Origin: Sphingobium fontiphilum
GTDB lineage: Bacteria; Pseudomonadota; Alphaproteobacteria; Sphingomonadales; Sphingomonadaceae
Length of the DNA: 64,000 bases
NCBI RefSeq assembly: GCF_014196635.1
Contig: NZ_JACIEB010000005.1
Location: 1-64,000 of the forward strand
Reading direction: 5' to 3'
The translations under genes and the position numbers were made by a program. Positions 688 through 12,488 of this stretch are shown here, one piece after another. Under the pieces are notes generated by a model. It was not told the origin of the DNA, ran no database searches, and was given only the letters and a program-made list of their open reading frames with translations. Each line of letters starts with the position of its first letter. The first letter of the stretch is position 1.

Positions 688-714
688 GTGTTCGTTGCGA
701 TTACCAAGCACGAG

Positions 715-3273
715 ATGGATCAATTTCGGGCTGCAACACCTTACGCCTGGGCCAAGCTCGATGAAACCGGTGCTCTCCCGTTATCCGATCATGGGGCGGA
801 CGTCGGCGCGACGCTGGGTGCCCTGCTAGAACAACCGCACTGGATCGCGCTTCTCGAACATGCGGCGCAGCGCCCGCTTTCGCCGCTCGATCTGGAACGA
901 CTGCGTGTGCTGGCCTATCTGCATGATCTTGGAAAAGCCAACCGGGGGTTCTGGGCCCGTCAGTTCGCCGGATCGCCCATTGTGGGACACACTAACGAAA
1001 CGGGTGCGTTGTTCTTTTCCCGCCTTGCTCGTGAGCCCGCTGTCGTCCCGCTCAATGCGCTGATCGACGATTGGGGGTGCTGGGAGCATTTCGTGGCGGT
1101 GATGGCGCACCACGGCACGCCCTTGCGCATCTATACTTCGGAAACGAAAAATCTCGAACCGGGCAATCGGTCCCAAAACTGGCAAGCCGATGCGCATTAT
1201 GACCCAATGGCGCAGCTAGCTGCGCTTATGGGCGACGTCGGGCAGCGGTTTCCGGCAGCGTTCGGGCCGGGACGGCACCTGCCCGACAATCCCGCCTTCG
1301 TCGCGCTGCTGGGTGGGATGGTGACGCTGACCGACTGGCTCGGCTCGGACCCCACCTTGTTCCCCGTTGGCGAGCCGCATCTGGAAATGCGGGAACGCCT
1401 GCGCGCGGTCTCGGCACCGGCGGCGATCCACTCACGCGGGCTGGCTCACGAATCAATCGTGGTTCGCAATTTCCACGAAGCATTCGGCTTTGGACCGCGC
1501 GGCGCACAAGCGGAGGCGAGCGATCCGGCGCTGGGGCGCATCGCCCTGCTGGAAGCGGAGACAGGTTCCGGCAAGACAGAGGCCGCGATCTGGCGCTGGC
1601 TGGCCCTGCGCGAGGCGGGAGCCGTCGACGGCCTCTACTTTGCCTTACCCACCCGCGCGGCGGCGGTACAGTTGCACGGCCGAATCAACGCGGTGCTCGA
1701 ACGATTGACTGGCGGCGCCGTCAACGCCGTTCTTGCCGTTCCTGGCTATATCCGCTCAGGCAGGGATGAGGCGGACCGTGTGCGCGACGATGAGGAGCGC
1801 TTGCTGCCCGGCTTCGATGTCGTCTGGCCGGATGGACAGGCGAACGACGGACGTTGGGCCGCCGAACATCCGAAGCGCTTCCTTGCCGCGCGCGTGGCGG
1901 TGGGAACGATCGATCAGGCGCTCATGGCTGGCCTGCAATTGCGCCACGCGCACTTCAGGGCGACGATGCTGGCCCGCAGCCTGCTGGTTGTCGATGAAGT
2001 GCACAGTTCCGATCATTTCATGGGCGAGGTGCTGCGCGCGGTCTTGCGCAATCACACCACGCTCGGCGGTCACGCCTTGCTGCTTTCCGCGACGCTCACC
2101 GCCGAGATGCGCGCAAGATTGCTCGATCCGTTCGCCCCCGCGCTCGAATTTCCTGCGCTCGATGAAGCAGTGGCGACGCCTTATCCCGCGCTTTCGGGAT
2201 CCCACGCCCCGCCCCGCCCAGTCGGAAGCGATAAGAGGCGGGAAAAGCCTGTAAAGCTGACGCTGCTCGGCGCGATCGACGATCCCCAAGGAATCGCGGC
2301 ACGGGCGGTCGAGGCAGCGCGAAAGGGAGCCTCGGTACTGATCGTGCGCAACAGCGTGAATGGCGCTGTCGCGGTCGCGCAAGCTGTGGAAGCGCTGGCT
2401 CCCGAACTAGCATTTCGGGCCGGGCACGTCGCCACGCTTCACCACAGCCGCTTCGCCCCCGATGATCGGCGGCTGCTGGATGCGGCAGTGGAAACGGCGT
2501 TCGGCAAGGGACGCAGCGCGCAGGGTCGCATCTTGTGCGGCACCCAGACGCTCGAACAAAGCCTCGACATCGACGCTGACTTGCTGCTGACCGACCTTGC
2601 CCCGATGGATGTGCTGTTGCAGCGGATTGGCCGCCTGCATCGGCATGACCGGCATGACCGGGGTACGTTCCTGAACGCTGAAGCCATCGTCCTCGCCCCA
2701 AAAGAGCGCGATCTTTCCCTATATCTCGGCCGAGTGCGCGATCGACACGGGCTTGGCCCCATGGCCGATGGTGGTGGCGTCTATCCCGACATGCTGGCGA
2801 TCGAGGCCACATGGCGGCTGATCGAAACCAATTCCGAAATCGCCATCCCAGCAGACAATCGCCGCCTTGTGGAAGAGGCGCTTCATCCGGATCGGGCCGA
2901 TGCGCTCCAGCAGGAACTGGGTACCGACTGGATGAACCACCTTGCCCAGCAACAGGGTATCGCCATAGCAGACCGACAAACCGCTCAAGCTGCAGCGCTG
3001 GACGTGCGGATACCATTCAGTGAGCTAGTCTTCCCCAAGGACATGGCAATCGCGACTAGGCTTGGCGCGCGGGACAGGCTGGCTATGTTCGATTCGCCGG
3101 TGCCAGGGCCGTTTGGGACGCAAGTCGAGCGCTTGACCGTACCCGATTGGATGGCTCGGGGCATTTCGACGGAGGCGGTCCCAGAAGTTTTGATATCCGG
3201 CGACGTCTTGCGCTTTGCTTGGGATGACGCCAGCTTCATCTATGACCGCTTCGGTTTGCGGCGAAGCACATGA
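715..3273 (+). CDS. cas3: CRISPR-associated helicase/nuclease Cas3 (type I-E)
   Basis: Cas3 is recruited by target-bound Cascade, unwinds DNA with its SF2 helicase and cuts the displaced strand with its HD nuclease. From the ATG at 715 the product is 852 aa. The HD domain shows H26, the H70-D71 pair in LHDLGKAN, H132-H133 and D207. Helicase motifs follow: Walker A ETGSGKT (282-288), DEVH (427-430), SAT (458-460) and motif VI QRIGRLHRH (636-644). All expected catalytic residues are present. A GTG at 688 would add nine residues. Neither start has a strong Shine-Dalgarno, and 715 fits family N-termini better. A strong terminator follows directly, so cas3 is a separate transcription unit from cse1-cas2. 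Confidence 0.96.
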   Translation: MDQFRAATPYAWAKLDETGALPLSDHGADVGATLGALLEQPHWIALLEHAAQRPLSPLDLERLRVLAYLHDLGKANRGFWARQFAGSPIVGHTNETGALFFSRLAREPAVVPLNALIDDWGCWEHFVAVMAHHGTPLRIYTSETKNLEPGNRSQNWQADAHYDPMAQLAALMGDVGQRFPAAFGPGRHLPDNPAFVALLGGMVTLTDWLGSDPTLFPVGEPHLEMRERLRAVSAPAAIHSRGLAHESIVVRNFHEAFGFGPRGAQAEASDPALGRIALLEAETGSGKTEAAIWRWLALREAGAVDGLYFALPTRAAAVQLHGRINAVLERLTGGAVNAVLAVPGYIRSGRDEADRVRDDEERLLPGFDVVWPDGQANDGRWAAEHPKRFLAARVAVGTIDQALMAGLQLRHAHFRATMLARSLLVVDEVHSSDHFMGEVLRAVLRNHTTLGGHALLLSATLTAEMRARLLDPFAPALEFPALDEAVATPYPALSGSHAPPRPVGSDKRREKPVKLTLLGAIDDPQGIAARAVEAARKGASVLIVRNSVNGAVAVAQAVEALAPELAFRAGHVATLHHSRFAPDDRRLLDAAVETAFGKGRSAQGRILCGTQTLEQSLDIDADLLLTDLAPMDVLLQRIGRLHRHDRHDRGTFLNAEAIVLAPKERDLSLYLGRVRDRHGLGPMADGGGVYPDMLAIEATWRLIETNSEIAIPADNRRLVEEALHPDRADALQQELGTDWMNHLAQQQGIAIADRQTAQAAALDVRIPFSELVFPKDMAIATRLGARDRLAMFDSPVPGPFGTQVERLTVPDWMARGISTEAVPEVLISGDVLRFAWDDASFIYDRFGLRRST

Positions 3274-3277
3274 TGCG

Positions 3278-3320
3278 GGCCAGAGCGGAGCCTGCATGCC
3301 AGACTCCGCTCTGGCCTTTT
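3278..3320 (+). terminator. Rho-independent terminator of cas3
   Basis: A perfect 13-bp stem begins four bases after the cas3 stop: GGCCAGAGCGGAG (3278-3290) pairs with 3304-3316 across a 13-nt loop. It is followed by TTTT at 3317-3320. It separates cas3 transcription from the downstream cas operon. Confidence 0.88.
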
Positions 3321-3415
3321 CATGATGAGCATGCCATTAGCAACATGGCACAATTCTCCTTTCTCCCTAGGCTGGGAAACGAGGCTGTGTCGCACAGGCG
3401 GCGCCGTCAGCGCCC

Positions 3416-3451
3416 CTCGACTGAGTGGGATCACACTCCCACTCAGTCGAG
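3416..3451. repeat. Perfect 15-bp palindrome in the cas3-cse1 gap
   Basis: Bases 3416-3430 (CTCGACTGAGTGGGA) are exactly complementary in reverse to 3437-3451, with a 6-nt loop TCACAC. No T-tract follows on either strand, so it is not a standard terminator. It lies upstream of the putative cascade promoter at 3521 and could be a protein operator, an mRNA hairpin or an element remnant. The function is unknown. Confidence 0.7.
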
Positions 3452-3483
3452 ATATCGAAAGCAACGCGGCAGATCAAGAAGAA

Positions 3484-3515
3484 AGATCACAACAAAGTCC
3501 GACTTCAATAAAAGG
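3484..3515 (-). promoter_or_regulatory. Putative Cascade target of the mini-CRISPR RNA, beside the cse1 promoter
   Basis: The minus-strand sequence read from 3515 down to 3484 matches the 32-nt spacer at 3584-3615 at 22 of 32 positions. In the first 23 positions only 2, 6 and 18 differ, and beyond that the match collapses. Positions 6 and 18 are flipped out of the Cascade R-loop in characterised I-E systems. The flanking bases read CAA in this register. In a register shifted by one the PAM reads AAC and the first six positions match, with a 1-nt indel next. The site ends 5 bp before the TTGACA box, so bound Cascade would obstruct RNA polymerase. Confidence 0.6.
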
Positions 3516-3520
3516 TTGTA

Positions 3521-3548
3521 TTGACAATTGACCTCCTTGCGCTACCAC
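3521..3548 (+). promoter_or_regulatory. Candidate promoter of the mini-CRISPR and cse1-cas2 operon
   Basis: A perfect -35 box TTGACA lies at 3521-3526, followed after 16 bp by the weak -10 TACCAC at 3543-3548. Transcription would begin near 3555, almost exactly at the first base of the degenerate repeat (3556). The -10 is poor, so the assignment depends mainly on the -35 box and the position. Confidence 0.45.
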
Positions 3549-3555
3549 TGCTCCG

Positions 3556-3644
3556 CATTCCACGTCTTTGCGTGGATAGCCCCCTTTTAATTGAAGTCGG
3601 CCTTTGGGGGATTAAGGTTCCCCCGCACTCGCGGGGATAGTGAT
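3556..3644 (+). ncRNA. CreR-like mini-CRISPR encoding a crRNA-like RNA upstream of cse1
   Basis: A degenerate 28-nt repeat lies at 3556-3583. It keeps the TTCC start, the GGATAG and CCC end, and a hairpin in which CCCCG/CGGGG has become CCACG/CGTGG, a compensated change. A spacer of exactly 32 nt follows (3584-3615). A second repeat at 3616-3641 matches the array consensus at 25 of 26 positions; the one change is in the hairpin loop and the last three bases diverge. Cas6e cleavage after the two hairpins would release a 61-nt RNA (3576-3636): an 8-nt ATAGCCCC handle, the guide and a 3' hairpin. The spacer partly matches DNA at 3484-3515. The cse1 Shine-Dalgarno (3648-3651) lies downstream of the cut and would be retained. 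The architecture is seen directly; the regulatory role is inferred from CreR-type guides known in other type I systems. Confidence 0.7.
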
Positions 3645-3656
3645 GGTGGAGAAAGC

Positions 3657-5144
3657 ATGCTTCGCTGGATCGGGCCAAGAATGGAGGAACAAGGCGATCT
3701 GTTCGCCTTGTTCGCTGCGCTTTCGCGGAGCGAAGTGGAGAGCTTTCCCGCGCTGCGTCCGCATCAGCGGCAGGCATGGCATTCATTTCTGGTGCAATGC
3801 GCGGCGATGGCGCTCATCCGAGCGGGGCAAGCCTCCTTGCCAGCCGACCCGGCGGCATGGCGCGCGTTGCTGATCGGCCTGACCCCTGAGTGGCCGGAAG
3901 GCGAGGCGTGGGAACTGGTGAGCCAGGACTGGCTGAAGCCCGCCCTGCTCCAGCCCCCGCTCGAAACGGCTGAAGATCGCAAGGATTTCAAGACGACCAT
4001 CGAAACCGCCGATGAACTCGACATGCTCGTCACCTCGCGCAACCACGATGTGAAGGCGGCGCGGATCAGCGCCGGGCGCGATGACGACTGGCTGTTCGCG
4101 CTGGTCACTTTGCAAACGATGGAGGGCTTTCTCGGCGCGGGCAATTACGGCATTTCGCGCATGAACGGAGGCTTTGCCAACAGGATGGCCTTGGGCATCC
4201 AACCTGCGGGCAACCTCTCCGCCGCTTTCGCACGCGATGTGAAGAGGCTGGTCGAGGTTGCGGCAAGCAACGCCCGGTCGGGCAAGGGAATCGCCGTGCT
4301 CTGGGCCATGCCGTGGGACGGGACGCGACAGTTGTCATTTGCGCAGCTCGATCCCCTGTACGTCGATATCTGCCGCCGGGTGCGCCTGAAACGCGACGCG
4401 GACGGCGCGCTTTGCGCGATGACGGCGGGTTCGAAAGTAACGCGCGTGGCAGCGGCGGGGCTGAACGGCAATACCGGCGATCCGTGGGCGCCGATCCGCT
4501 TGTCGGACAACGCCAGCATCTCTGCTTCGCCTGGCACATTCGGCTACCGCAAATTCACGGAATTGCTCGACCGGGCAAAAACCGGACGGCCCTTGCTCTC
4601 CCTCCCCACTGAAAGCGACGCTGCCGAAGGGCTGGCCATCTTTGCCACCGCTCTGGTGCGCGGACAGGGCAAGACCGAGGGCCTTCATCGCCGCGTTATC
4701 CCGGTTTCCCGGTCCCGAAAGGGAGGGCGTCTTGGCGATGCGTTTCTCGACCGCATGGGGCAGGTGGCCCAGGTTCGTGCGGTCGAAGCGGGAGAAGTCC
4801 GCAAGCGGCTGCGGATGGCGACAATGTCGCTGATGCAGGGTGGTCCGACATCGCTGAGGCTGGACGACGATTCCAGTGCGCGCAAGTGCGAGACGTGGCT
4901 GCAATCCTTTGAGCTTGGCGTTGATCGCGTCTTTTTCGATCCGGCTTTCTGGGACGAATTCGAAGAGGCGGAAGGCAATCACCGTCTTGTCTGGCGCACC
5001 ATGCTGACTGGTCTTGCCAACGACGTTTTCGAACAGGCCGCCGAAGCCGCGCCGCGCACCGACGTTCGCCGGGTCCGCGCCCAAGCGATTGCTCGCAACA
5101 TGCTGGACGCCACACTGGCGGCCTATATCAGGGAGGTTCGCTGA
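3657..5144 (+). CDS. casA: Type I-E Cascade large subunit Cse1 (CasA/Cas8e)
   Basis: Cse1 recognises the PAM and docks Cas3 in the Cascade complex. The product is 495 aa, close to the roughly 500 aa of known Cse1 proteins. The ATG at 3657 has a good GGAG Shine-Dalgarno at 3648-3651, 5 nt upstream. An upstream in-frame TTG at 3591 would lie inside the mini-CRISPR spacer and is rejected. The N-terminus (LRWIGPRMEEQGDLFALFAA) lacks the usual NLL-x-D-x-WIPV opening of E. coli-type Cse1, so this is a divergent form. Identification rests on position between cas3 and cse2, size and general Cse1 character. It overlaps cse2 by one base and leads the Cascade/adaptation operon. Confidence 0.9.
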   Translation: MLRWIGPRMEEQGDLFALFAALSRSEVESFPALRPHQRQAWHSFLVQCAAMALIRAGQASLPADPAAWRALLIGLTPEWPEGEAWELVSQDWLKPALLQPPLETAEDRKDFKTTIETADELDMLVTSRNHDVKAARISAGRDDDWLFALVTLQTMEGFLGAGNYGISRMNGGFANRMALGIQPAGNLSAAFARDVKRLVEVAASNARSGKGIAVLWAMPWDGTRQLSFAQLDPLYVDICRRVRLKRDADGALCAMTAGSKVTRVAAAGLNGNTGDPWAPIRLSDNASISASPGTFGYRKFTELLDRAKTGRPLLSLPTESDAAEGLAIFATALVRGQGKTEGLHRRVIPVSRSRKGGRLGDAFLDRMGQVAQVRAVEAGEVRKRLRMATMSLMQGGPTSLRLDDDSSARKCETWLQSFELGVDRVFFDPAFWDEFEEAEGNHRLVWRTMLTGLANDVFEQAAEAAPRTDVRRVRAQAIARNMLDATLAAYIREVR

Positions 5145-5683
5145 TGGACGTTGACGGCCACGAAGGCGGCGCCACGCCAAAAGACCCCGTCGCATCCATC
5201 GGCGGCCAGCTGCCGCACCTTTCCACCGGCAACCGTGCCGCGTTGCGCCGCATATTCCTGACCAGATCCGCCGACGCGGACGGTGTAGTCATGGGTCTGC
5301 TCAGCGCGGCTGAGGTCCCCGAGGCCGAATGGCGCGGGCCCGCATCGTTGAAGCGATGGCGGCTGATCGCGCATGTCGCAGCAACCTTGTCGGGCACGGC
5401 GGGCGTGAATCCCCATTCGCCCATGCGTCCGCTGGGGCAAGCGCTCCAAGCCGCCGGTTTCTCCGAAAACCGGCTGATGCGGCTTACCACCGCCCGTGGC
5501 CCTGCGCTCATCGATCAAATCGTTCACGCCGCGCGGTATCTGGCGCAGGCCGGGCAAGTGCAGATCGATCTGCGCACCGTCCGCGCGCTTGTCAGTGACC
5601 GCGCGGATATTGCCGAGGATGCGCGCCTGCGCATCGCTCGCGACTACTATTCGGCTGCCTACAAAGCCAAGGAGAAGCCATGA
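5144..5683 (+). CDS. casB: Type I-E Cascade small subunit Cse2 (CasB)
   Basis: Cse2 forms the small-subunit dimer along the Cascade belly that stabilises the R-loop. The 179-aa product has the family size and an Arg-rich helical character (for example RAALRRIFLTRSAD and LKRWRLIAHVAATL). The ATG shares a base with the cse1 stop (TGATG), and the 3' end overlaps cas7e by 4 bp, so translation is probably coupled. The family is poorly conserved, and the assignment leans on gene order. Confidence 0.9.
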   Translation: MDVDGHEGGATPKDPVASIGGQLPHLSTGNRAALRRIFLTRSADADGVVMGLLSAAEVPEAEWRGPASLKRWRLIAHVAATLSGTAGVNPHSPMRPLGQALQAAGFSENRLMRLTTARGPALIDQIVHAARYLAQAGQVQIDLRTVRALVSDRADIAEDARLRIARDYYSAAYKAKEKP

Positions 5684-6867
5684 CACCGCGGTTCTTACAG
5701 ATCCACTTCCTCAGCGCATGGCCGGGCGCACTGCTCAACCGTGACGATGCGGGGCTCGCCAAGCGCCTGCCGTTCGGCCCGGCAACCCGCACGCGAATTT
5801 CCTCGCAGTGCCTCAAGCGGCACTGGCGCATGGCTGACGATCCGCGAGGGCTTCACGCGCTAGCGATGGAAAACGGCGTCGCAGGCGAACGCAGCAAAGT
5901 CGCCATCGAGCGGCTGGTCACAGGGCCACTGCGCGACAAGTTCGCGACCGATCTTGTCGATGCGGTAGAGGCTGAATTCATCGCGAAATACTACGGCAAG
6001 AAGGCGATCGACCCCAAGCAGCGGCAGGCGCTGCTGTTTGGGCAGCCGGAAGTGTCATTCCTGCGTGACGAAGCCGAAAGAATACTGGCCGAAAGCACGA
6101 CCGCAAAGGAAGCCGCCGCCGCCGCGCAGGCCTTTGCGAAGGAGCAGCGGGCCAATCTTTCCGCGCTCGGCGATCAAGTCGCGCTGGCGCCGGGGCTTGA
6201 GGCCGCCCTGTTCGGTCGGATGATGACGTCCGATGTGCGCGCCAACACCGATGCGGCCATTCACGTCGCCCACGCCTTCACCGTCCACGACGAACAGCCC
6301 GAACTTGATTACTTCACCGTGGTTGACGATTTGCGGAGCCGCGAGGACGATGGTGATTCCGGCGCCGCCGGCGTGTTCGACACCGAACTCACCTCCGGGC
6401 TTTATTACGGCTACGTCGTAGTCGACGTGCCGCAGCTGGTTTCCAACCTGACTGGCTGCCACCGCAAGCATTGGGACAGCGAAGAAGACCGCGAATTGGC
6501 CGCCCGCGTGGTCGAGAACCTCGTTTGGCTGATCGCGGAAATTTCGCCGGGAGCCAAGAAGGGCTCAACCGCGCCATACAGCCGCGCCGAATTCATCCTG
6601 ATCGAGGCTGGAGAACGTCAACCGCGCACACTGGCCAACGCCTTCCGAGAGCCGGTGTCACTGGCGTCGCACCACAACGAAAGCCTGGGACGTCGCAGCG
6701 CCGATGCGCTTGCCCGCCACCTTGCCGATCTCGATGAAACATACGCCACGGGCGAGGTGCGCAGGCAGATGGCGTTGCCCGACATGGCCTTGGGTGGGGT
6801 CGAGCGCCAGCCTCTCGCTGCCATCGCAAGCTGGGCCGGCGGACTGGTGCGGGATGCCCGCTGCTGA
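5680..6867 (+). CDS. casC: Type I-E Cascade backbone protein Cas7e (CasC/Cse4)
   Basis: Cas7e polymerises along the crRNA to form the Cascade backbone and nicks R-loop contacts into 6-nt steps. The 395-aa product starts with a typical Cas7e segment: QIHFLSAWPGALLNRDDAGL, then RLPFGPATRTRISSQCLKRHWR. Later it carries the RAMP-like FDTELTSGLYYGYVVVDVPQL strand. It overlaps cse2 by 4 bp (ATGA) and shares one base with cas5e (TGATG). Length is slightly above the E. coli protein (363 aa). Confidence 0.95.
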   Translation: MTPRFLQIHFLSAWPGALLNRDDAGLAKRLPFGPATRTRISSQCLKRHWRMADDPRGLHALAMENGVAGERSKVAIERLVTGPLRDKFATDLVDAVEAEFIAKYYGKKAIDPKQRQALLFGQPEVSFLRDEAERILAESTTAKEAAAAAQAFAKEQRANLSALGDQVALAPGLEAALFGRMMTSDVRANTDAAIHVAHAFTVHDEQPELDYFTVVDDLRSREDDGDSGAAGVFDTELTSGLYYGYVVVDVPQLVSNLTGCHRKHWDSEEDRELAARVVENLVWLIAEISPGAKKGSTAPYSRAEFILIEAGERQPRTLANAFREPVSLASHHNESLGRRSADALARHLADLDETYATGEVRRQMALPDMALGGVERQPLAAIASWAGGLVRDARC

Positions 6868-7583
6868 TGTCCGCACATCTCGTCCTGCGACTTGAAGCGC
6901 CGCTGATGAGCTTTGGCGGCGACATGGTCGATGCCTTCGGCGTCGTGCGCGATTTTCCGTCGCGATCCATGATCACCGGCCTTATCGCCAATGCGCTGGG
7001 CTGGGACCGTGCGGAGGCGGATCGACATGAGGCGCTGCAGGCGCGCCTCGTCATGGGATCGGTCCGCCTTCGCGAAGGGCGCCGGGTGCGGGATTTTCAG
7101 ACTGCGCAACTCGGGGCTGCGGACAAGGGCTGGACAACTCGGGGCAGGCCCGAAGGACGGTCAGGCGGGGCGGGAACTTACAACTCGCCTCACATCCGCT
7201 ATCGCGATGCCGATGCCGATGCACTGGTTCTTGTCGTCCTCCGCCTCGGTCCGGCAGACGGCGCGCCCGATTTGGGCACCGTTGCTGCGGCGCTGAACAT
7301 GCCGGAACGACCTCTTTTCATCGGCCGTAAGCCGTTCCTGCCATCCACCCCCGTCGTTGCCGGACACGTCGAGGCCGAAACCGTGCTAGATGCCTTGCGC
7401 GCCGTGGTCGCGCGCTTCGCCCCCGCTCCGACCGGAAGCTACGCTGCGCAGTGGCCCATCGGCGAAGGCAACGCGGAGCAGGCGCGGATCGAGGAGTTGA
7501 CCGACGGGCGCAGCTGGCCTTCGGGCGTCCATGCCGGTCTGCGCCGCACGATGAATGCCCGGATCAGCGGAGAAGTCGCATGA
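6867..7583 (+). CDS. casD: Type I-E Cascade protein Cas5e (CasD)
   Basis: Cas5e caps the crRNA 5' handle at the base of Cascade. The 238-aa product opens with MSAHLVLRLEAPLMSFGG, a clear Cas5 N-terminal RAMP strand, followed by VRDFPSRSMITGLIANALGW. The C-terminus carries YAAQWPIGEG and RTMNARISGEVA. The start overlaps the cas7e stop by one base, and the end overlaps cas6e by 4 bp. No catalytic residue is expected, as pre-crRNA cutting in I-E is done by Cas6e. Confidence 0.94.
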   Translation: MSAHLVLRLEAPLMSFGGDMVDAFGVVRDFPSRSMITGLIANALGWDRAEADRHEALQARLVMGSVRLREGRRVRDFQTAQLGAADKGWTTRGRPEGRSGGAGTYNSPHIRYRDADADALVLVVLRLGPADGAPDLGTVAAALNMPERPLFIGRKPFLPSTPVVAGHVEAETVLDALRAVVARFAPAPTGSYAAQWPIGEGNAEQARIEELTDGRSWPSGVHAGLRRTMNARISGEVA

Positions 7584-8350
7584 GCGGGCTGCACCTCGTC
7601 CGCATCGCGCTCGATCGCCCGGCGCTGATGGCTTTCGCCGTCGCCCGCCACCGGTCCGACGATGATTTGGGATACGCGCTACACCTGGCGTTGCGGCTGC
7701 GCTTTGGCGATGCCGCGCCGCAGCCGTTTCGCCTGGAAGAGCCGCCGGGGCGCGCGCCGTTCTTGATCGGCTATACTGCAAACGGTGTTGCGCTTAACGC
7801 AGCCCACGCGCTCCCGCCGGTGGATGCAGCGTTGGAGGCGATCTTTCCCTCGGCTCCCGAATGCCGCCCGATGCCCGAATTGTGGCAGCCGGGCGCACGG
7901 TTCCGCTTCAAGGTCCGCGTCCGGCCGGTGGTGCGTTACGGCACCCGCATCCGCGCGGAGCGTGCGAGATCGACGACGGCTCTATTGCCGAAAGCGGGAG
8001 AGGTGGATGCCTTCGTTGCTGCCTGTAGCAAAGCCGACCCCAGCACACCGCTCGACCGCAAAACAGTCTATCGCGACTGGCTGAAGCGTCGCTTTTCGCC
8101 CGCAGCCCTCCTGGAAGACGCGCGGATTGAGCGGATGCAGCGGGTCCGCACCCGCCGATCGCGCCACGACGGGAACGGTACGCGCCTCACGGAATCTTAT
8201 GAAGTTGTCTTTGTCGGCACACTGGAAGTTGCCGATCCCGGAAGGTTCGCCGATCTTCTTGCGCGCGGCGTCGGCCGACATGGCGCATTCGGCTTCGGAA
8301 TGCTGACGCTTGCCCCGCCAGGCCCCCAAAGCGTAGTGAAAGCGGGCTGA
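7580..8350 (+). CDS. casE: Type I-E pre-crRNA endoribonuclease Cas6e (CasE/Cse3)
   Basis: Cas6e cuts pre-crRNA at the 3' base of each repeat hairpin and stays bound to it as the Cascade head. The ATG at 7580 overlaps the cas5e stop (ATGA), giving 256 aa. The N-terminus MSGLHLVRIALDRPALMAFAV followed by RHRSDDDLGYALH supplies a candidate catalytic His at 24. The glycine-rich RNA-binding loop near the C-terminus reads LLARGVGRHGAFGFG. The same enzyme would process both the main array and the mini-CRISPR at 3556-3644, because the repeat hairpin CCCCGC/GCGGGG is shared. Confidence 0.94.
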   Translation: MSGLHLVRIALDRPALMAFAVARHRSDDDLGYALHLALRLRFGDAAPQPFRLEEPPGRAPFLIGYTANGVALNAAHALPPVDAALEAIFPSAPECRPMPELWQPGARFRFKVRVRPVVRYGTRIRAERARSTTALLPKAGEVDAFVAACSKADPSTPLDRKTVYRDWLKRRFSPAALLEDARIERMQRVRTRRSRHDGNGTRLTESYEVVFVGTLEVADPGRFADLLARGVGRHGAFGFGMLTLAPPGPQSVVKAG

Positions 8351-9216
8351 TGCTGCACGGCCGTCTCGGTCTGGAAAAGGCGCGAATTCCGCACGCCGAC
8401 CGGCACGGCCTTGTCTGGCTAGATCGCGGGCGTCTGGAAGTGGAAGACGGGTGCCTGCGCTTCGTGACTGCGGGTGGCGGCGATCTTGCGCCCGGCGACT
8501 ACCAGATACCGCATCAGTCCATCTCCATTGTACTGCTCGGCCCCGGATCCAGTGTGACCCACGATGCCTTGCGGCTTCTCGCACGTCATGGCTGCGCGCT
8601 TGCGGCGATCGGCACGGGGGCGGTGAGGTTCTACACGGCGCCCCCGCTGATGCCAGACACTTCTGCCATCGCCCGCAACCAGGTGCGCCTGTGGAGCAGC
8701 CCACAAAAGCGCATGGACGTGGCGCGCGCAATGTACGCGCTGCGTTTCGGCGAAATCGTGCGCACGCGCGACATCGAAGTGTTGCGCGGGCAGGAAGGCG
8801 CACGCATCAAGCGTGCCTATGTTCTGGCCGCCGAACGCCATGGCATCCGCTGGTCCGGCCGCAATTATGATCGCGCCAGCCCGGAAGCGGGCGACCTTGC
8901 CAATCAGGCCATCAACCACGCCGGCTCAGCCATGACCGCCGCCGCCAGCGTGGCGGTGGCGTCGGTGGGCGCCATCCCGCAGCTGGGCTTCGTGCATGAG
9001 GATAGCGGCCAGTCATTCGTGCTGGACATCGCCGACCTCTATCGACACGATGTGCTACTCGATATCGCATTCGGCGCGGTGAAAACCGCGAAAGGCGAGC
9101 CGATAGAGCGCGTCGTGCGTCGCCACGCGGCACAGTTGTTCCGTCAGCGGGAAGTCATTTCCGGCATGATCGACAGGATCAAGCAGCTGCTCGCGCCTGA
9201 CGCTCAGGCCGATTGA
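8350..9216 (+). CDS. cas1: Type I-E CRISPR integrase Cas1
   Basis: Cas1 with Cas2 inserts new spacers at the leader end of the array. The 288-aa product shows the metal-binding active site: E149 in LRGQEGARIKRAY, H216 in LGFVHEDSG, and D226/D229 in VLDIADLYRHD. All are intact. The start shares one base with the cas6e stop. Adaptation therefore looks functional at the protein level, consistent with a long and well-conserved array. Confidence 0.96.
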   Translation: MLHGRLGLEKARIPHADRHGLVWLDRGRLEVEDGCLRFVTAGGGDLAPGDYQIPHQSISIVLLGPGSSVTHDALRLLARHGCALAAIGTGAVRFYTAPPLMPDTSAIARNQVRLWSSPQKRMDVARAMYALRFGEIVRTRDIEVLRGQEGARIKRAYVLAAERHGIRWSGRNYDRASPEAGDLANQAINHAGSAMTAAASVAVASVGAIPQLGFVHEDSGQSFVLDIADLYRHDVLLDIAFGAVKTAKGEPIERVVRRHAAQLFRQREVISGMIDRIKQLLAPDAQAD

Positions 9217-9233
9217 CGGTCCGATCGAAAGCC

Positions 9234-9581
9234 ATGCCCCTTGTCGTCGTCATTACCCGCGATGTCGAAAGCCGGTACAGGGGCTTTCTCGGCTCGGCTA
9301 TGCTGGAACTGGCCCCCGGAGTATATGCGCAACCGCGCATGTCGGCAGGCGTGCGCACGCGCATTGCGGACGTCCTGTCCGACTGGCACGGCCGCCTGCA
9401 ACGCGGCAGTATCGTGATGTGCTGGGCCGAACCGAAAGCGCACGGCGGTCTCGGCCTGCAAACTTGGGGAACCCCGCCCCGGGACATCGTGACACACGAT
9501 GCCATGCTGTTGGTGCGCCGCGCTTGCCAAAGCCCGAGAAACGGTGAAGATGCGAGGCAAACCGATCTTTCCAAGTGTTAA
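9234..9581 (+). CDS. cas2: Type I-E adaptation protein Cas2 (CasI-e)
   Basis: Cas2e is the structural dimer bridging two Cas1 dimers. From the ATG at 9234 the product is 115 aa and begins MPLVVVITRDVESRYRGFLG, aligning with E. coli Cas2 starts. A TTG at 9213 overlapping the cas1 stop would add seven residues. The body has LELAPGVYAQPRMSAGVRTRI and IVMCW. It is about 20 residues longer than E. coli Cas2e (94 aa). The extra C-terminal part (about from ACQSPRNG on) is encoded by DNA that must also serve as array leader, since the first repeat begins only 19 bp after the stop. Confidence 0.93.
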   Translation: MPLVVVITRDVESRYRGFLGSAMLELAPGVYAQPRMSAGVRTRIADVLSDWHGRLQRGSIVMCWAEPKAHGGLGLQTWGTPPRDIVTHDAMLLVRRACQSPRNGEDARQTDLSKC

Positions 9582-9600: not shown

Positions 9601-12190
9601 GGTTCCCCCGCACCCGCGGGGATAGTCCCAGGACGAAGGTTTCGCTGTCCTCGCCCACGGTGGTTCCCCCGCACCCGCGGGGATAGTCCCACCATAAGCC
9701 GGTCTATCTCACCGCGTTCCACGGTTCCCCCGCACCCGCGGGGATAGTCCCTCGATGGCTGATTTCTCCTGCCGGAAAACGCCGGTTCCCCCGCACCCGC
9801 GGGGATAGTCCCCAGTCAGGCATCGGGCGTTCCTTCGGTCGGTAGGTTCCCCCGCACCCGCGGGGATAGTCCCATAAGGGCATGTCATATGTGCCCGAAC
9901 ATCACGGTTCCCCCGCACCCGCGGGGATAGTCCCCGCTTCACGCTCAGCATCACTGTCTAAGGAGCGGTTCCCCCGCACCCGCGGGGATAGTCCCGCCAT
10001 CGGCACGGGGATCAGCGCGGCAAGCACGGTTCCCCCGCACCCGCGGGGATAGTCCCGCCCTGACCGTCGCTGGCGCGTTGATTTTGGAGGTTCCCCCGCA
10101 CCCGCGGGGATAGTCCCAACGGCGTCGTCGCTGTCGATCATCGCGCCTAGGTTCCCCCGCACCCGCGGGGATAGTCCCCTGCCCGAACGATTCTTCGGCG
10201 GTGACCGGCAGGTTCCCCCGCACCCGCGGGGATAGTCCCGCCCGATCAGGCGGCGCAGCTCGCCGCATACGGGTTCCCCCGCACCCGCGGGGATAGTCCC
10301 GCCCTCACTGATTTGAACGGCGCACCATAGACGGTTCCCCCGCACCCGCGGGGATAGTCCCTGGAAGGATGGCGGCGCGCGCCCCAGGGCCATGGTTCCC
10401 CCGCACCCGCGGGGATAGTCCCTTGCGCAATTGGCTTTTGGAAAGCCATTCGCAGGTTCCCCCGCACCCGCGGGGATAGTCCCCACCTCGACCGTATTCT
10501 GTTCCTCGTTGAAGGGTTCCCCCGCACCCGCGGGGATAGTCCCCCCCGAAGCCCGCGCGCTGCTGACCGATTGCGGGTTCCCCCGCACCCGCGGGGATAG
10601 TCCCGCCAAGGCGCGCGATTTCCGCAGCCAGACCGAGGTTCCCCCGCACCCGCGGGGATAGTCCCGATATTCGCAATGAGCTTGATGTTGTGGATGAGGT
10701 TCCCCCGCACCCGCGGGGATAGTCCCTGCGGCCATGGCTCGATGACAAGGAAGTGCAGGGTTCCCCCGCACCCGCGGGGATAGTCCCTCATCCGTATCGG
10801 CGTGATCGCCTCGGTCGATGGTTCCCCCGCACCCGCGGGGATAGTCCCCCAACCCGCTGTTCGATGATGATCTGGGCTTTGGTTCCCCCGCACCCGCGGG
10901 GATAGTCCGCATTCCAGCATCGCCCAGTAGCGATAATGGACGGTTCCCCCGCACCCGCGGGGATAGTCCCTGGGATCCAGAAAGCATCTGCGGAACACTG
11001 GGGGTTCCCCCGCACCCGCGGGGATAGTCCCTGATCAGCAAGGGGCTGGCCGAACGGGGCATCGGTTCCCCCGCACCCGCGGGGATAGTCCCCAATGCTG
11101 GATCGTCGCGGCGTCTGGCGTTGTGGTTCCCCCGCACCCGCGGGGATAGTCCCAAGGCCACGCTCTACGCCGCGCATTTCCTCGGGGTTCCCCCGCACCC
11201 GCGGGGATAGTCCCCTGTTTGTTGATGGCGTCGCCCTGTTCGACCCGGTTCCCCCGCACCCGCGGGGATAGTCCCTATGCCCAGGCGCAGGCGCAGGCCG
11301 CTGCTGAGGTTCCCCCGCACCCGCGGGGATAGTCCCCCGATCGTCGAACTCATCAACACGATCGAATTGGTTCCCCCGCACCCGCGGGGATAGTCCCTCG
11401 CGCTGGGCTTCCTCACGCGGCGACAGAACGGTTCCCCCGCACCCGCGGGGATAGTCCCAACTTATCCACTGACCGACAGCGACGTGGCCGGGTTCCCCCG
11501 CACCCGCGGGGATAGTCCCGCTTGCCAGACCGGCCGTGGCTTCTCCAGTTCGGTTCCCCCGCACCCGCGGGGATAGTCCCCCCATGCCGGGCCGCGTCAG
11601 CGTGTCCGAAGGGGTTCCCCCGCACCCGCGGGGATAGTCCCCTGGGTGCCATGGCGTCAGTCGCGGCGGCGACGGTTCCCCCGCACCCGCGGGGATAGTC
11701 CCAAGCAGGCGGAAATCAACATCCAGCCCGGCGAGGTTCCCCCGCACCCGCGGGGATAGTCCCTTGACCTTGTCGCGGAAGATGTTCTCAGCGGAGGTTC
11801 CCCCGCACCCGCGGGGATAGTCCCATCGCGGGCCAGATCGATCACGACTGGAACGAGGTTCCCCCGCACCCGCGGAGATAGTCCCAATACGCTGACCGAC
11901 TGGAGCGGCGGCCTCACGGTTCCCCCGCACCCGCGGGGATAGTCCCATGGCCGCCACTTTCGGCCCCATGTTGACGCCGGTTCCCCCGCACCCGCGGGGA
12001 TAGTCCCATGGTCAGGTGCGCTTGAACCAGCGCGAGAGGGGTTCCCCCGCACCCGCGGGGATAGTCCTTTCGTCCGCGCGATTGCCGACGCGGCCGAAGC
12101 GGTTCCCCCGCACCCGCGGGGATAGTCCCAAGGCCACGCTCTACGCCGCGCATTTCCTCGGGGTTCCCCCGCACCCGCGGGGATAGTCCC
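9601..12190 (+). CRISPR. Type I-E CRISPR array, 43 repeats and 42 spacers
   Basis: The 29-nt repeat begins GGTTCCCCCGCACCCG and ends CGGGGATAGTCCC, with a 6-bp hairpin CCCCGC/GCGGGG around ACCC. It resembles the E. coli I-E repeat in the same orientation, so crRNAs are read left to right from the cas2 side. The period is 61 bp (32-nt spacers), except that spacer 15 (10484-10514) is 31 nt. Repeat variants are few: last base G at 10909, last base T at 12068, and a G-to-A at 11876 that breaks the hairpin of repeat 38. Spacer 26 (11154-11185) and the last spacer 42 (12130-12161) are identical. Spacer targets cannot be named from the sequence alone. Confidence 0.99.
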
Positions 12191-12414
12191 AGGTGATCGC
12201 ATACAAAGCCCATCTGGCAGCTCGTGCCCTCGCGAGCCAGTAAATGAAGCGGTGAGAGGGCCAGGCAGCGATCGCGGCGCATGAATCGACTAGGGATCTT
12301 TACTTCCCAGCCCCCTGACTTACCAGCCGAGGTGATTGCCAGGTGATTGCTACAGAATGACCTCAGCACCGCGGAGAGGTGCTCCGACATTCGTTAAGTC
12401 ATTGATATCGTTTC
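12191..12414. other. Array trailer up to the tRNA gene, no gene seen
   Basis: These 224 bp after the last repeat hold no convincing gene. A direct repeat AGGTGATTGC occurs twice with one base between, near 12331-12352. A 6-bp hairpin AGCACC/GGTGCT lies at 12365-12383 without a T-tract. No copy of the tRNA 3' end was found that would mark an attachment site. Confidence 0.5.
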
Positions 12415-12488
12415 TGGAGCGGGTAGCGGGGATCGAACCCGCATCACAAGCTTGGAAGGCTAGTGCTCTACCATTGAGCTATACCCGC
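12415..12488 (-). tRNA. tRNA-Gly (anticodon TCC)
   Basis: The minus strand folds as a tRNA. The acceptor stem is GCGGGTA/TACCCGC (12482-12488 with 12419-12425). The D-loop AGCTCAATGGTAGAGC, the anticodon loop CTTCCAA with anticodon TCC, and the T-loop GGTTCGATCCC are all present. The discriminator is T and the 3' CCA is encoded at 12415-12417. The gene lies between the CRISPR trailer and trpE, with its 3' end facing the array. Confidence 0.95.

What the first reader, a model, noticed from the sequence alone, without database searches (positions are those of the whole stretch)
3484..3644. CreR-like mini-CRISPR whose guide targets the promoter of its own Cascade operon (type I-E)
Seen: a degenerate repeat (3556-3583, hairpin kept by a compensated C-G to A-T change), a spacer of exactly 32 nt (3584-3615) and a 25/26 repeat (3616-3641) stand alone in front of cse1. 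The spacer matches the minus strand of 3515-3484: 20 of the first 23 positions agree, with mismatches at 2, 6 and 18, then the match is lost. Positions 6 and 18 are flipped out in Cascade R-loops. A one-base shift instead gives an AAC PAM, a perfect 6-nt seed and a single-base indel. The target ends 5 bp before TTGACA (3521-3526), and predicted transcription starts at the degenerate repeat. Processing by Cas6e would give a standard 61-nt crRNA (3576-3636). Established: in other type I systems, crRNA-like guides with partial complementarity let Cascade repress cas promoters without triggering Cas3 cutting. Inference: this is a negative-feedback guide, embedded in the operon's 5' leader. Repression should ease when Cascade is consumed by array crRNAs or inhibited, for example by an anti-CRISPR.
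Basis: partly seen in the sequence, partly recalled or inferred. Interest (0 to 1): 0.92.

Follow-up and report, generated by a model that had tools for sequence, protein, structure and literature searches.

The report
Guide RNA aimed at own CRISPR promoter
In front of its CRISPR defence genes this bacterium carries a tiny built-in CRISPR unit whose guide matches DNA beside the likely promoter of those same genes, so the defence complex probably turns itself down; this kind of feedback is already described elsewhere, and look-alikes with different guides in other bacteria support it here.

Summary
Between cas3 and cse1 of a type I-E locus stand a degenerate repeat (3555-3583), a 32-nt spacer (3584-3615) and a second repeat (3616-3644). 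The spacer matches the minus strand of 3515-3484 at 20 of 23 positions; 50,000 shuffled guides reached at most 19, and no other site in the 3.41-Mb genome lies within 3 mismatches. One base out of register, a deletion opposite guide position 6 (flipped out in Cascade) gives an AAC PAM and 15 of 15 contacted positions. Ten of 39 type I-E loci examined, this one included, carry a mini-CRISPR before cse1. Each guide has a local target; 8 of the 9 other PAMs are AAC, AAG or ATG, the ninth AAT; seven of the nine stand clearly above shuffled guides. In 8 of 10 the target lies within 10 bp of a top-scoring promoter-like site, 2.0 expected. Best reading: a CreR-type guide by which Cascade represses the creR-cse1 promoter. 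Type I-E CreR is already reported, so this is a new member of a known kind. Main rival: CreTA, with a doubtful toxin candidate on the minus strand. Nothing was tested in cells.

The parts
688..3273 (+). cas3
   Evidence: Pfam Cas3_HD, DEAD, Cas3-like_C_2; PADLOC Cas3e
3278..3320 (+). terminator-like 13-bp hairpin with TTTT directly after cas3, so that cse1 probably needs its own promoter
   Evidence: read by eye; inner part 3298-3315 reported as terminator-like
3320..3346 (-). candidate CreT mini-ORF ATG TTG CTA ATG GCA TGC TCA TCA TGA behind an AAGGAG Shine-Dalgarno (rival reading only)
   Evidence: but 60 of 200 shuffles of this strand also hold such a mini-ORF
3416..3451 (.). perfect 15-bp inverted repeat, possible 5' hairpin of a minus-strand transcript
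   Evidence: minus strand 3455-3310 folds with z = -4.36
3449..3477 (-). weak minus-strand promoter-like site TTGATC-17-TATCTC, 5 bp from the PAM-protospacer block (rival reading)
   Evidence: third-ranked in the gap
3483..3514 (-). target (protospacer), AAC register with one base missing opposite guide position 6; ungapped register is 3484-3515
3515..3517 (-). PAM AAC (ungapped register: CAA at 3516-3518)
3521..3548 (+). best-scoring promoter-like site of the gap, TTGACA-16-TACCAC, 3 bp from the PAM
   Evidence: below the threshold
3555..3583 (+). psiR1, degenerate repeat; last 8 nt ATAGCCCC are the predicted 5' handle
3584..3615 (+). guide (psi-spacer), 32 nt
3616..3644 (+). psiR2, near-intact repeat
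3576..3636 (+). predicted mature 61-nt crRNA-like RNA (CreR) if Cas6e cuts both hairpins as in arrays
   Evidence: inference from repeat anatomy
3657..5144 (+). cse1 (cas8e), first gene of the Cascade operon; GGAG at 3648-3651
   Evidence: PADLOC PDLC01386 Cas8e, E 6e-142; no Pfam match
5144..9581 (+). cse2, cas7e, cas5e, cas6e, cas1e, cas2e
9601..12191 (+). main CRISPR array, 43 repeats

Best explanation
A CreR-type mini-CRISPR. A transcript starting just downstream of TTGACA (3521-3526) would carry psiR1-guide-psiR2 as the 5' leader of the cse1 mRNA. Cas6e would cut both hairpins, releasing a 61-nt guide (3576-3636) and leaving cse1 its ribosome site. Cascade loaded with it would bind the minus-strand target at 3514-3483 next to the AAC PAM, 3 bp from the -35 box, and block that promoter. 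Pairing covers every contacted guide position up to 23 and is then largely lost; in E. coli, mismatches over 25-32 leave binding intact without detectable interference. Repression would ease when array crRNAs or an anti-CRISPR take Cascade away. Shown: anatomy, match, its uniqueness, look-alikes, nearness to promoter-like sites. Inferred: transcription, processing, binding, repression, relief.
For: Match beyond chance. Two repeats with kept hairpins and a standard 32-nt spacer in a type I-E locus. psiR1 more degenerate than psiR2, as described for CreTA repeats (PMC9458426 passage). Nine other loci with different guides and local targets; where no PAM was demanded the top local site of the 8 tested had AAC (L047, L048, L072, L074), AAT (L051), AAG (L062, L065) or ATG (L061); L076 (AAG) was tested only with a PAM demanded. 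Seven of the nine are equalled by at most 2 of 1,000 shuffled guides (ungapped). All six non-window guides cross-tested score higher, with a PAM demanded, in their own gap than in any of the others (without a PAM L051 ties). A best or tied-best promoter-like site lies within 10 bp of the PAM-target block in 8 of 10 loci against 2.0 expected for random placement. In L047 and L062 no Shine-Dalgarno-led ORF was found in the gap on either strand. E. coli Cascade binds with a PAM and about 5 seed pairs (PMC5904413 passages); mismatches at 25-32 or 19-32 did not reduce binding. CreA of type I-B represses with positions 1-5 and 7-11 alone (PMC8501985 passages).
Against: The plus-strand -10 is poor and no promoter passes the strict scan; the second-ranked promoter-like site lies inside the guide, away from the target. 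The AAC register needs a one-base deletion; ungapped with a PAM the window scores only 8 of 15 (676 of 1,000 shuffles as good), and two foreign gaps equal its PAM-flanked score. L047 (43 of 1,000) and L051 (304 of 1,000) are weak. A cited study found promoter repression by E. [quoted passage not shown] Three of the nine look-alikes (L048, L061, L065) have toxin-like mini-ORFs behind the targeted promoter, though such ORFs are common by chance. The predicted 61-nt RNA can fold its handle and first guide base onto guide bases 23-27. The closest relative lacks the cassette.
Confidence: 0.6

Rival explanations
1. CreTA: the guide is an antitoxin RNA (CreA) whose Cascade complex silences a divergent toxin RNA (CreT) on the minus strand, from TTGATC-17-TATCTC (3477-3449), with a 15-bp 5' hairpin, a Shine-Dalgarno, an 8-codon mini-ORF (3346-3320) and a stem-loop (3316-3278). 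Loss of Cascade would release the toxin.
For: Layout like that read by eye in L048, L061 and L065: promoter, hairpin, Shine-Dalgarno, short ORF. The PAM-target block ends 5 bp from the minus -35. A published type I-E CreTA in the cas3-casA gap of Citrobacter rodentium has creA on the strand opposite creT and a target over the creT UP element (PMC12055562 passages). A type I-F CreTA sits in the cas3-csy1 gap (PMC10097628 passages). Strong minus-strand folding, z -4.36, 0 of 200 shuffles.
Against: A Shine-Dalgarno-led mini-ORF of at most 20 codons occurs in 60 of 200 shuffles of this strand, so it is no evidence in itself. The minus promoter scores below the plus one (11.5 against 12.5). Codons CTA and TCA are only moderately rare (3.9 per 1000 in the cas genes), with no tandem AGA or AUA. 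The stem-loop carries its T run on the plus strand and already fits as the cas3 terminator. No relative of the stretch was found in plasmids (3276-3590) or phages.
Confidence: 0.15
2. Relic: a once-functional or never-functional duplicated repeat-spacer unit that no longer makes an active guide.
For: psiR1 is only 18 of 29 identical to the array repeat. The single-base deletion breaks the ungapped register. The closest relative lives without the cassette. Promoter repression with PAM-distal mismatches may be weak.
Against: The psiR1 hairpin is kept by a paired exchange, and all contacted positions up to 23 still pair while 6 and 18, which do not pair in Cascade, do not. Repeat degeneration is a common feature of such units.
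Confidence: 0.15
3. Ordinary self-targeting spacer or a chance inverted repeat with no regulatory role, for example a recent acquisition from the neighbouring DNA.
For: Guide and target are inverted copies about 70 bp apart.
Against: Two repeats stand alone before cse1 rather than in the array. A like arrangement with different guides is present in nine other loci. The match is lost after position 23, where a fresh self spacer would match throughout. No viral contig holds the first 19 nt of the guide.
Confidence: 0.05

Closest known systems
CreR (Cas-regulating RNA) in type I-B, I-E and V-A systems (primary 2023 paper not held; known here from passages of reviews PMC13131331, PMC12948488, PMC12737573)
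   Same: crRNA-like unit with partial complementarity to the cas promoter of its own system
   Different: guide sits in the cse1 leader; target lacks the base opposite flipped-out position 6 yet pairs to position 23. Whether the published I-E case shares this could not be read. No functional test here
CreTA, type I-E of Citrobacter rodentium (PMC12055562, passages)
   Same: crRNA-like unit in the cas3-casA gap with a PAM-flanked partial target at a promoter
   Different: regulated product is a translated toxin; in the window only a doubtful minus-strand candidate exists, while the plus promoter leads into cse1
CreTA, type I-F of Acinetobacter (PMC10097628, passages)
   Same: two degenerate repeats in the cas3 to first-effector-gene gap; non-pairing positions 6, 11 and 18
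   Different: type I-F, CC PAM, toxin RNA product
CreTA of H. hubeiense, type I-B, archaeal (PMC8501985, passages and one section)
   Same: two psi-repeats, seed 1-5 and 7-11, PAM beside a promoter element, CreA acting on the creTA promoter
   Different: type I-B, AUA-codon toxin RNA
Cas9 autorepression by a natural single-guide RNA (seen as a sentence and a reference title)
   Same: CRISPR effector represses its own promoter through a natural guide
   Different: class 2, no mini-CRISPR

Membership tests
CreR | mini-CRISPR with two repeat analogues beside the cas genes | tested here: met
CreR | guide partially complementary to the cas promoter, with PAM and seed | tested here: met
   target 3 bp from the best-scoring -35 of the gap; AAC PAM with 15 of 15 contacted positions and one missing base, or 20 of 23 ungapped with CAA. 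The promoter itself is only predicted
CreR | generally not coupled to a toxin gene (PMC12737573 passage) | tested here: inconclusive
   no Shine-Dalgarno-led mini-ORF on the plus strand; candidate on the minus strand, of a kind common by chance
CreR | guide RNA made and processed by Cas6 | not testable with these tools
   needs small-RNA sequencing
CreR | Cascade-dependent repression, relieved by crRNA competition or anti-CRISPR | not testable with these tools
   needs reporters
CreTA | toxin RNA with strong Shine-Dalgarno, start codon, tandem rare codons and stable stem-loop (as in PMC8501985) | tested here: inconclusive
   minus-strand Shine-Dalgarno, ATG, 8 codons and stem-loop present; no tandem rarest codons; mini-ORF not above chance
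CreTA | target at the toxin promoter | tested here: inconclusive
   weak minus promoter-like site 5 bp away
Type I-E CRISPR-Cas | cas3, cse1, cse2, cas7e, cas5e, cas6e, cas1e, cas2e with 29-nt repeats and 61-nt period | tested here: met
   Cse1 by PADLOC, not by Pfam

The most novel reading that the evidence does not exclude
One Cascade-binding site lies between two divergent promoters and would shut both: the plus-strand creR-cse1 promoter (feedback on Cascade) and a minus-strand toxin RNA (addiction). Losing Cascade would then both raise Cascade synthesis and release the toxin. In addition, the target lacks exactly the base opposite flipped-out guide position 6, which would show that a natural Cascade R-loop tolerates a missing base there.
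Probability: 0.12. Interest if true: 0.75.

Novelty: new member of a known kind. Interest (0 to 1): 0.5.

Why it matters
It offers a testable example of RNA-guided self-control in a bacterial type I-E system, plus a set of loci in which different guides keep matching a local promoter-side target, evidence that does not rest on one match. The same gap seems to be used with cse1 directly downstream in some lineages and perhaps with toxin-like products in others, so the set could show how one changes into the other. The AAC-flanked targets suggest the PAM of this Cas8e group (inference).

Tried and rejected
PAM from array spacers: the array (window 9601-12200) had no match in phages; in plasmids 100 records matched (40 listed), most of them Streptomyces, and the listed ones look like array-to-array matches through the repeats, so no protospacer was found. 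Relatives of the gap itself: none in plasmids (3276-3590) or phages (3276-3656). Guide of phage origin: first 19 nt absent from viral contigs. Rfam on 3200-3720: only two microRNA matches far below their gathering score, taken as chance. The palindrome arm of 3416-3451 occurs nowhere else in the window within 3 mismatches.

Blind scans for hairpin-guide-hairpin plus PAM-flanked target. First form (33 loci, 60 shuffles each): window, L048, L051 and L074 above all 60 shuffles, the window one base out of register; L065 (at a wrong register) and L073 equalled once. Second form (33 loci, 100 shuffles each): 4 of 33 (L065, L048, L074, L051) over a threshold passed by 1.2% of shuffles; the window was not found (its top hit was a different, spurious site), nor were L047, L061, L062, L072 and L076, probably because their stems, register or deletion break the rules; L063 and L073 gave sub-threshold hits. 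L073 is taken as chance. The ten loci were recognised by eye and tested afterwards, which is a selection.

Considered and dropped: chance match; the ungapped register (its position-2 mismatch falls in the seed and its PAM CAA occurs in none of the nine relatives); guides for the solitary repeat-like hairpins in L060 and L066 (none assigned). Between the first and this version of the report I ran; they lowered CreTA from 0.2 to 0.15 and the joint reading from 0.15 to 0.12, and raised the relic from 0.12 to 0.15.

Full report
What is there. The window holds a type I-E locus: cas3 688-3273, cse1 3657-5144, cse2, cas7e, cas5e, cas6e, cas1e and cas2e to 9581, then an array of 43 repeats at 9601-12191, spacing 61 with one 60. 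Cse1 has no Pfam match but is a clear PADLOC Cas8e (PDLC01386). In the 383-nt gap before cse1 lie psiR1 3555-3583 (18 of 29 identical to the array repeat), a 32-nt spacer 3584-3615 and psiR2 3616-3644 (25 of 29). A 13-bp hairpin followed by TTTT lies directly behind cas3 (3278-3320, by eye; one search reports its inner part), so cse1 probably needs its own promoter.

The match. The spacer pairs with the minus strand at 3515-3484: 20 of 23, mismatches at 2, 6 and 18. Of 50,000 shuffled guides none reached 20 and one reached 19. In the 3,410,606-base genome only the guide and this target lie within 3 mismatches of guide positions 1-23. The PAM in that register is CAA. Shifted by one base, the PAM is AAC and guide CTTTTAATTGAAGTCGG meets CTTTT-ATTGAAGTCGG: with a base missing opposite position 6, 15 of 15 contacted positions (1-5, 7-11, 13-17) match, 0 of 1,000 shuffled guides as good; positions 19-23 match too (output). 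Without the deletion the PAM-flanked score is only 8 of 15, no better than chance (676 of 1,000). Every sixth position is flipped out in Cascade (PMC5904413 passage); positions 6 and 12 of the type I-B CreA are dispensable (PMC8501985 passage).

Relatives. Cse1-bearing genomes are rare: 2 of 298 in the family sample, 1 of 94 in the genus, the window's own, 12 of 385 in the class sample, 7 of them over the family cut-off, 16 of 398 in the phylum sample, 5 of 149 and 3 of 43 in two further groups, 1 of 3, 1 of 7 and 1 of 9 in three small families, each only its own known member, and 6 plasmid records (5 opened). One named chromosomal relative was found. I examined the stretch before cse1 in 39 loci: 33. 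Left out: G519, where the cse1 start is not on the contig, and the sixth plasmid record, a partial match. Ten of the 39, the window included, carry a mini-CRISPR there. In all ten at least 156 nt separate the upstream ORF named and cse1. In 23 loci with a gap of about 100 nt or less none was recognised; for some of these I looked only with the scans, not by eye. The remaining six have intervening genes (L026, L027, L028), an array (L063), a solitary repeat-like hairpin (L066) or no upstream ORF found (L053). Stretches upstream of cas3 were not surveyed; L060 has a solitary repeat-like hairpin there.

Guides and targets. By eye the ten guides differ. With a PAM (AAN or ATG) demanded within 600 nt before cse1, targets are (contacted matches of 15; shuffled guides as good, of 1,000; ungapped): L047 AAC 10 (43), L048 AAC 13 (0), L051 AAT 9 (304), L072 AAC 13 (0), L074 AAC 13 (0), L061 ATG 13 (0), L062 AAG 14 (0), L065 AAG 12 (2), L076 AAG 13 (1) (coordinates in the orientation). 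Without a PAM demand the top local site of the window and of eight others is the same site, give or take the one-base shift in the window, and the eight carry AAN or ATG; the window's carries CAA. Over the whole fetched locus the local site is still the best in 8 of 9 tested (window, L047, L048, L051, L062, L065; L072, L074); in L061 a site with PAM AGG has a higher seed score; L076 was not ranked this way. Cross-pairing seven guides with one another's gaps, PAM demanded, gave lower scores for all six non-window guides; the window's ungapped PAM-flanked score (16) was equalled by two foreign gaps, and it exceeds them only without a PAM demand (24 against at most 18); without a PAM L051 ties with two foreign gaps.

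Geometry. In the window, L047, L048, L051 and L072 the target is on the minus strand with the PAM towards a plus-strand -35-like box: 3, 1, 7, overlapping and 10 bp away; for L051 the TTGATT box was read by eye and does not rank. In L061, L062, L065, L074 and L076 the target is on the plus strand. A best or tied-best promoter-like site lies within 10 bp of the PAM-target block in 8 of 10 loci (not L051 and L061; in L074 that site is on the minus strand), 2.0 expected if the block were placed at random in the gap; counting the next-ranked site, 9 of 10, 3.0 expected, P about 0.0001. These are consensus matches, not mapped promoters.

What the promoter drives. In L047 and L062 no Shine-Dalgarno-led ORF was found on either strand and in L051, L072 and L074 none of at most 20 codons. 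L051 and L072 have a 70-80-codon leader ORF that runs through the mini-CRISPR to the cse1 start. L048, L061 and L065 have a hairpin, a Shine-Dalgarno and a mini-ORF of 4 to 17 codons behind the targeted promoter; L076 has a hairpin and Shine-Dalgarno before a longer ORF (by eye). They resemble CreT (definition), but 63, 47 and 63 of 200 shuffles of L048, L061 and L065 hold such a mini-ORF on that strand, so the resemblance is weak evidence.

The rival in the window. On the minus strand the PAM-target block is followed after 5 bp by TTGATC-17-TATCTC, then a perfect 15-bp inverted repeat, AAGGAG, an 8-codon ORF and a stem-loop. The promoter is weaker than the plus one, the codons only moderately rare, and 60 of 200 shuffles hold such a mini-ORF. 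I give CreTA alone 0.15 and joint control of both promoters 0.12, the latter counted partly within the CreR reading.

Would it repress without cutting? In E. coli, mismatches over 25-32 or 19-32 left Cascade binding intact; those over 25-32 gave no detectable interference but did give primed adaptation, and those over 19-32 neither. The same paper cites work in which promoter repression fell greatly with 6 PAM-distal mismatches (PMC5904413 passages). The window's guide, paired to 23, lies between the two cases. Against that stand CreA RNAs, which repress with about 10 or 17 pairs (PMC8501985, PMC10097628, passages).

The closest relative. Novosphingobium sp. PC22D (L011) has Cse1 86% identical and a 41-copy array with the same 23-nt repeat core, but a 75-nt cas3-cse1 gap without a mini-CRISPR, and no further copy within 3 mismatches of that core in its genome. 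A psiR1-like copy would have escaped that search. The cassette is thus dispensable and was gained or lost; the direction is unknown.

Literature. CreR autorepression in I-B, I-E and V-A is stated in PMC13131331 (passage); CreR is described in PMC12948488 and PMC12737573 (passages). The primary CreR paper and the 2023 survey of CRISPR-derived regulatory RNAs are not held, so I cannot say whether this locus or its relatives are listed there. None of the titles listed by searches is on such an alphaproteobacterial case, and one search found no paper. Details of the 2023 papers beyond those passages are recalled.

Verdict. Real, well above chance, most likely a CreR-type autorepression guide; a new member of a known kind, function untested.

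Noticed in passing
window 3278-3477, minus strand: Promoter-like site, hairpin, Shine-Dalgarno, 8-codon ORF and stem-loop that together resemble a CreT toxin RNA; the mini-ORF alone is common by chance.
   Followed up: partly
L065 5714-5830, L061 2660-2790, L048 5100-5300 (orientation): Toxin-like mini-ORFs (for example Met-Thr-Ile-Arg-Ile with AGG-ATA in L065) behind targeted promoters in the cas3-cse1 gap.
   Followed up: partly
L076 1240-1500 (flipped orientation): Hairpin and AAAGGAGG before a GTG ORF longer than 20 codons, behind the targeted promoter-like site.
   Followed up: no
L051 about 4730-4955 and L072 about 1287-1502 (flipped orientation): Leader ORFs of about 70-80 codons read through the mini-CRISPR and overlap the cse1 start codon.
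   Followed up: no
L026 8084-8836: Salinibacter ruber plasmid: DUF6364 and PIN-domain genes, toxin-antitoxin-like, sit between cas3 and cse1.
   Followed up: no
L062 about 5196-5438 (flipped orientation): A short ORF that resembles a Phd/YefM-type antitoxin (recalled resemblance, not searched) lies between the upstream long ORF and the mini-CRISPR.
   Followed up: no
window 12415-12488; L011 about 811-886: A tRNA-Gly lies behind the array; in PC22D a tRNA-like sequence (by eye) lies upstream of cas3, so the cas islands sit by different tRNA genes.
   Followed up: no
window 3580-3610: Guide bases 23-27 (GGGGG) can pair with the handle and first guide base of the predicted 61-nt RNA.
   Followed up: no
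L066 2318-2345 (flipped orientation) and L060 2490-2518: Solitary repeat-like hairpins, on the minus strand in the L066 gap and upstream of cas3 in L060, without an assigned guide.
   Followed up: no
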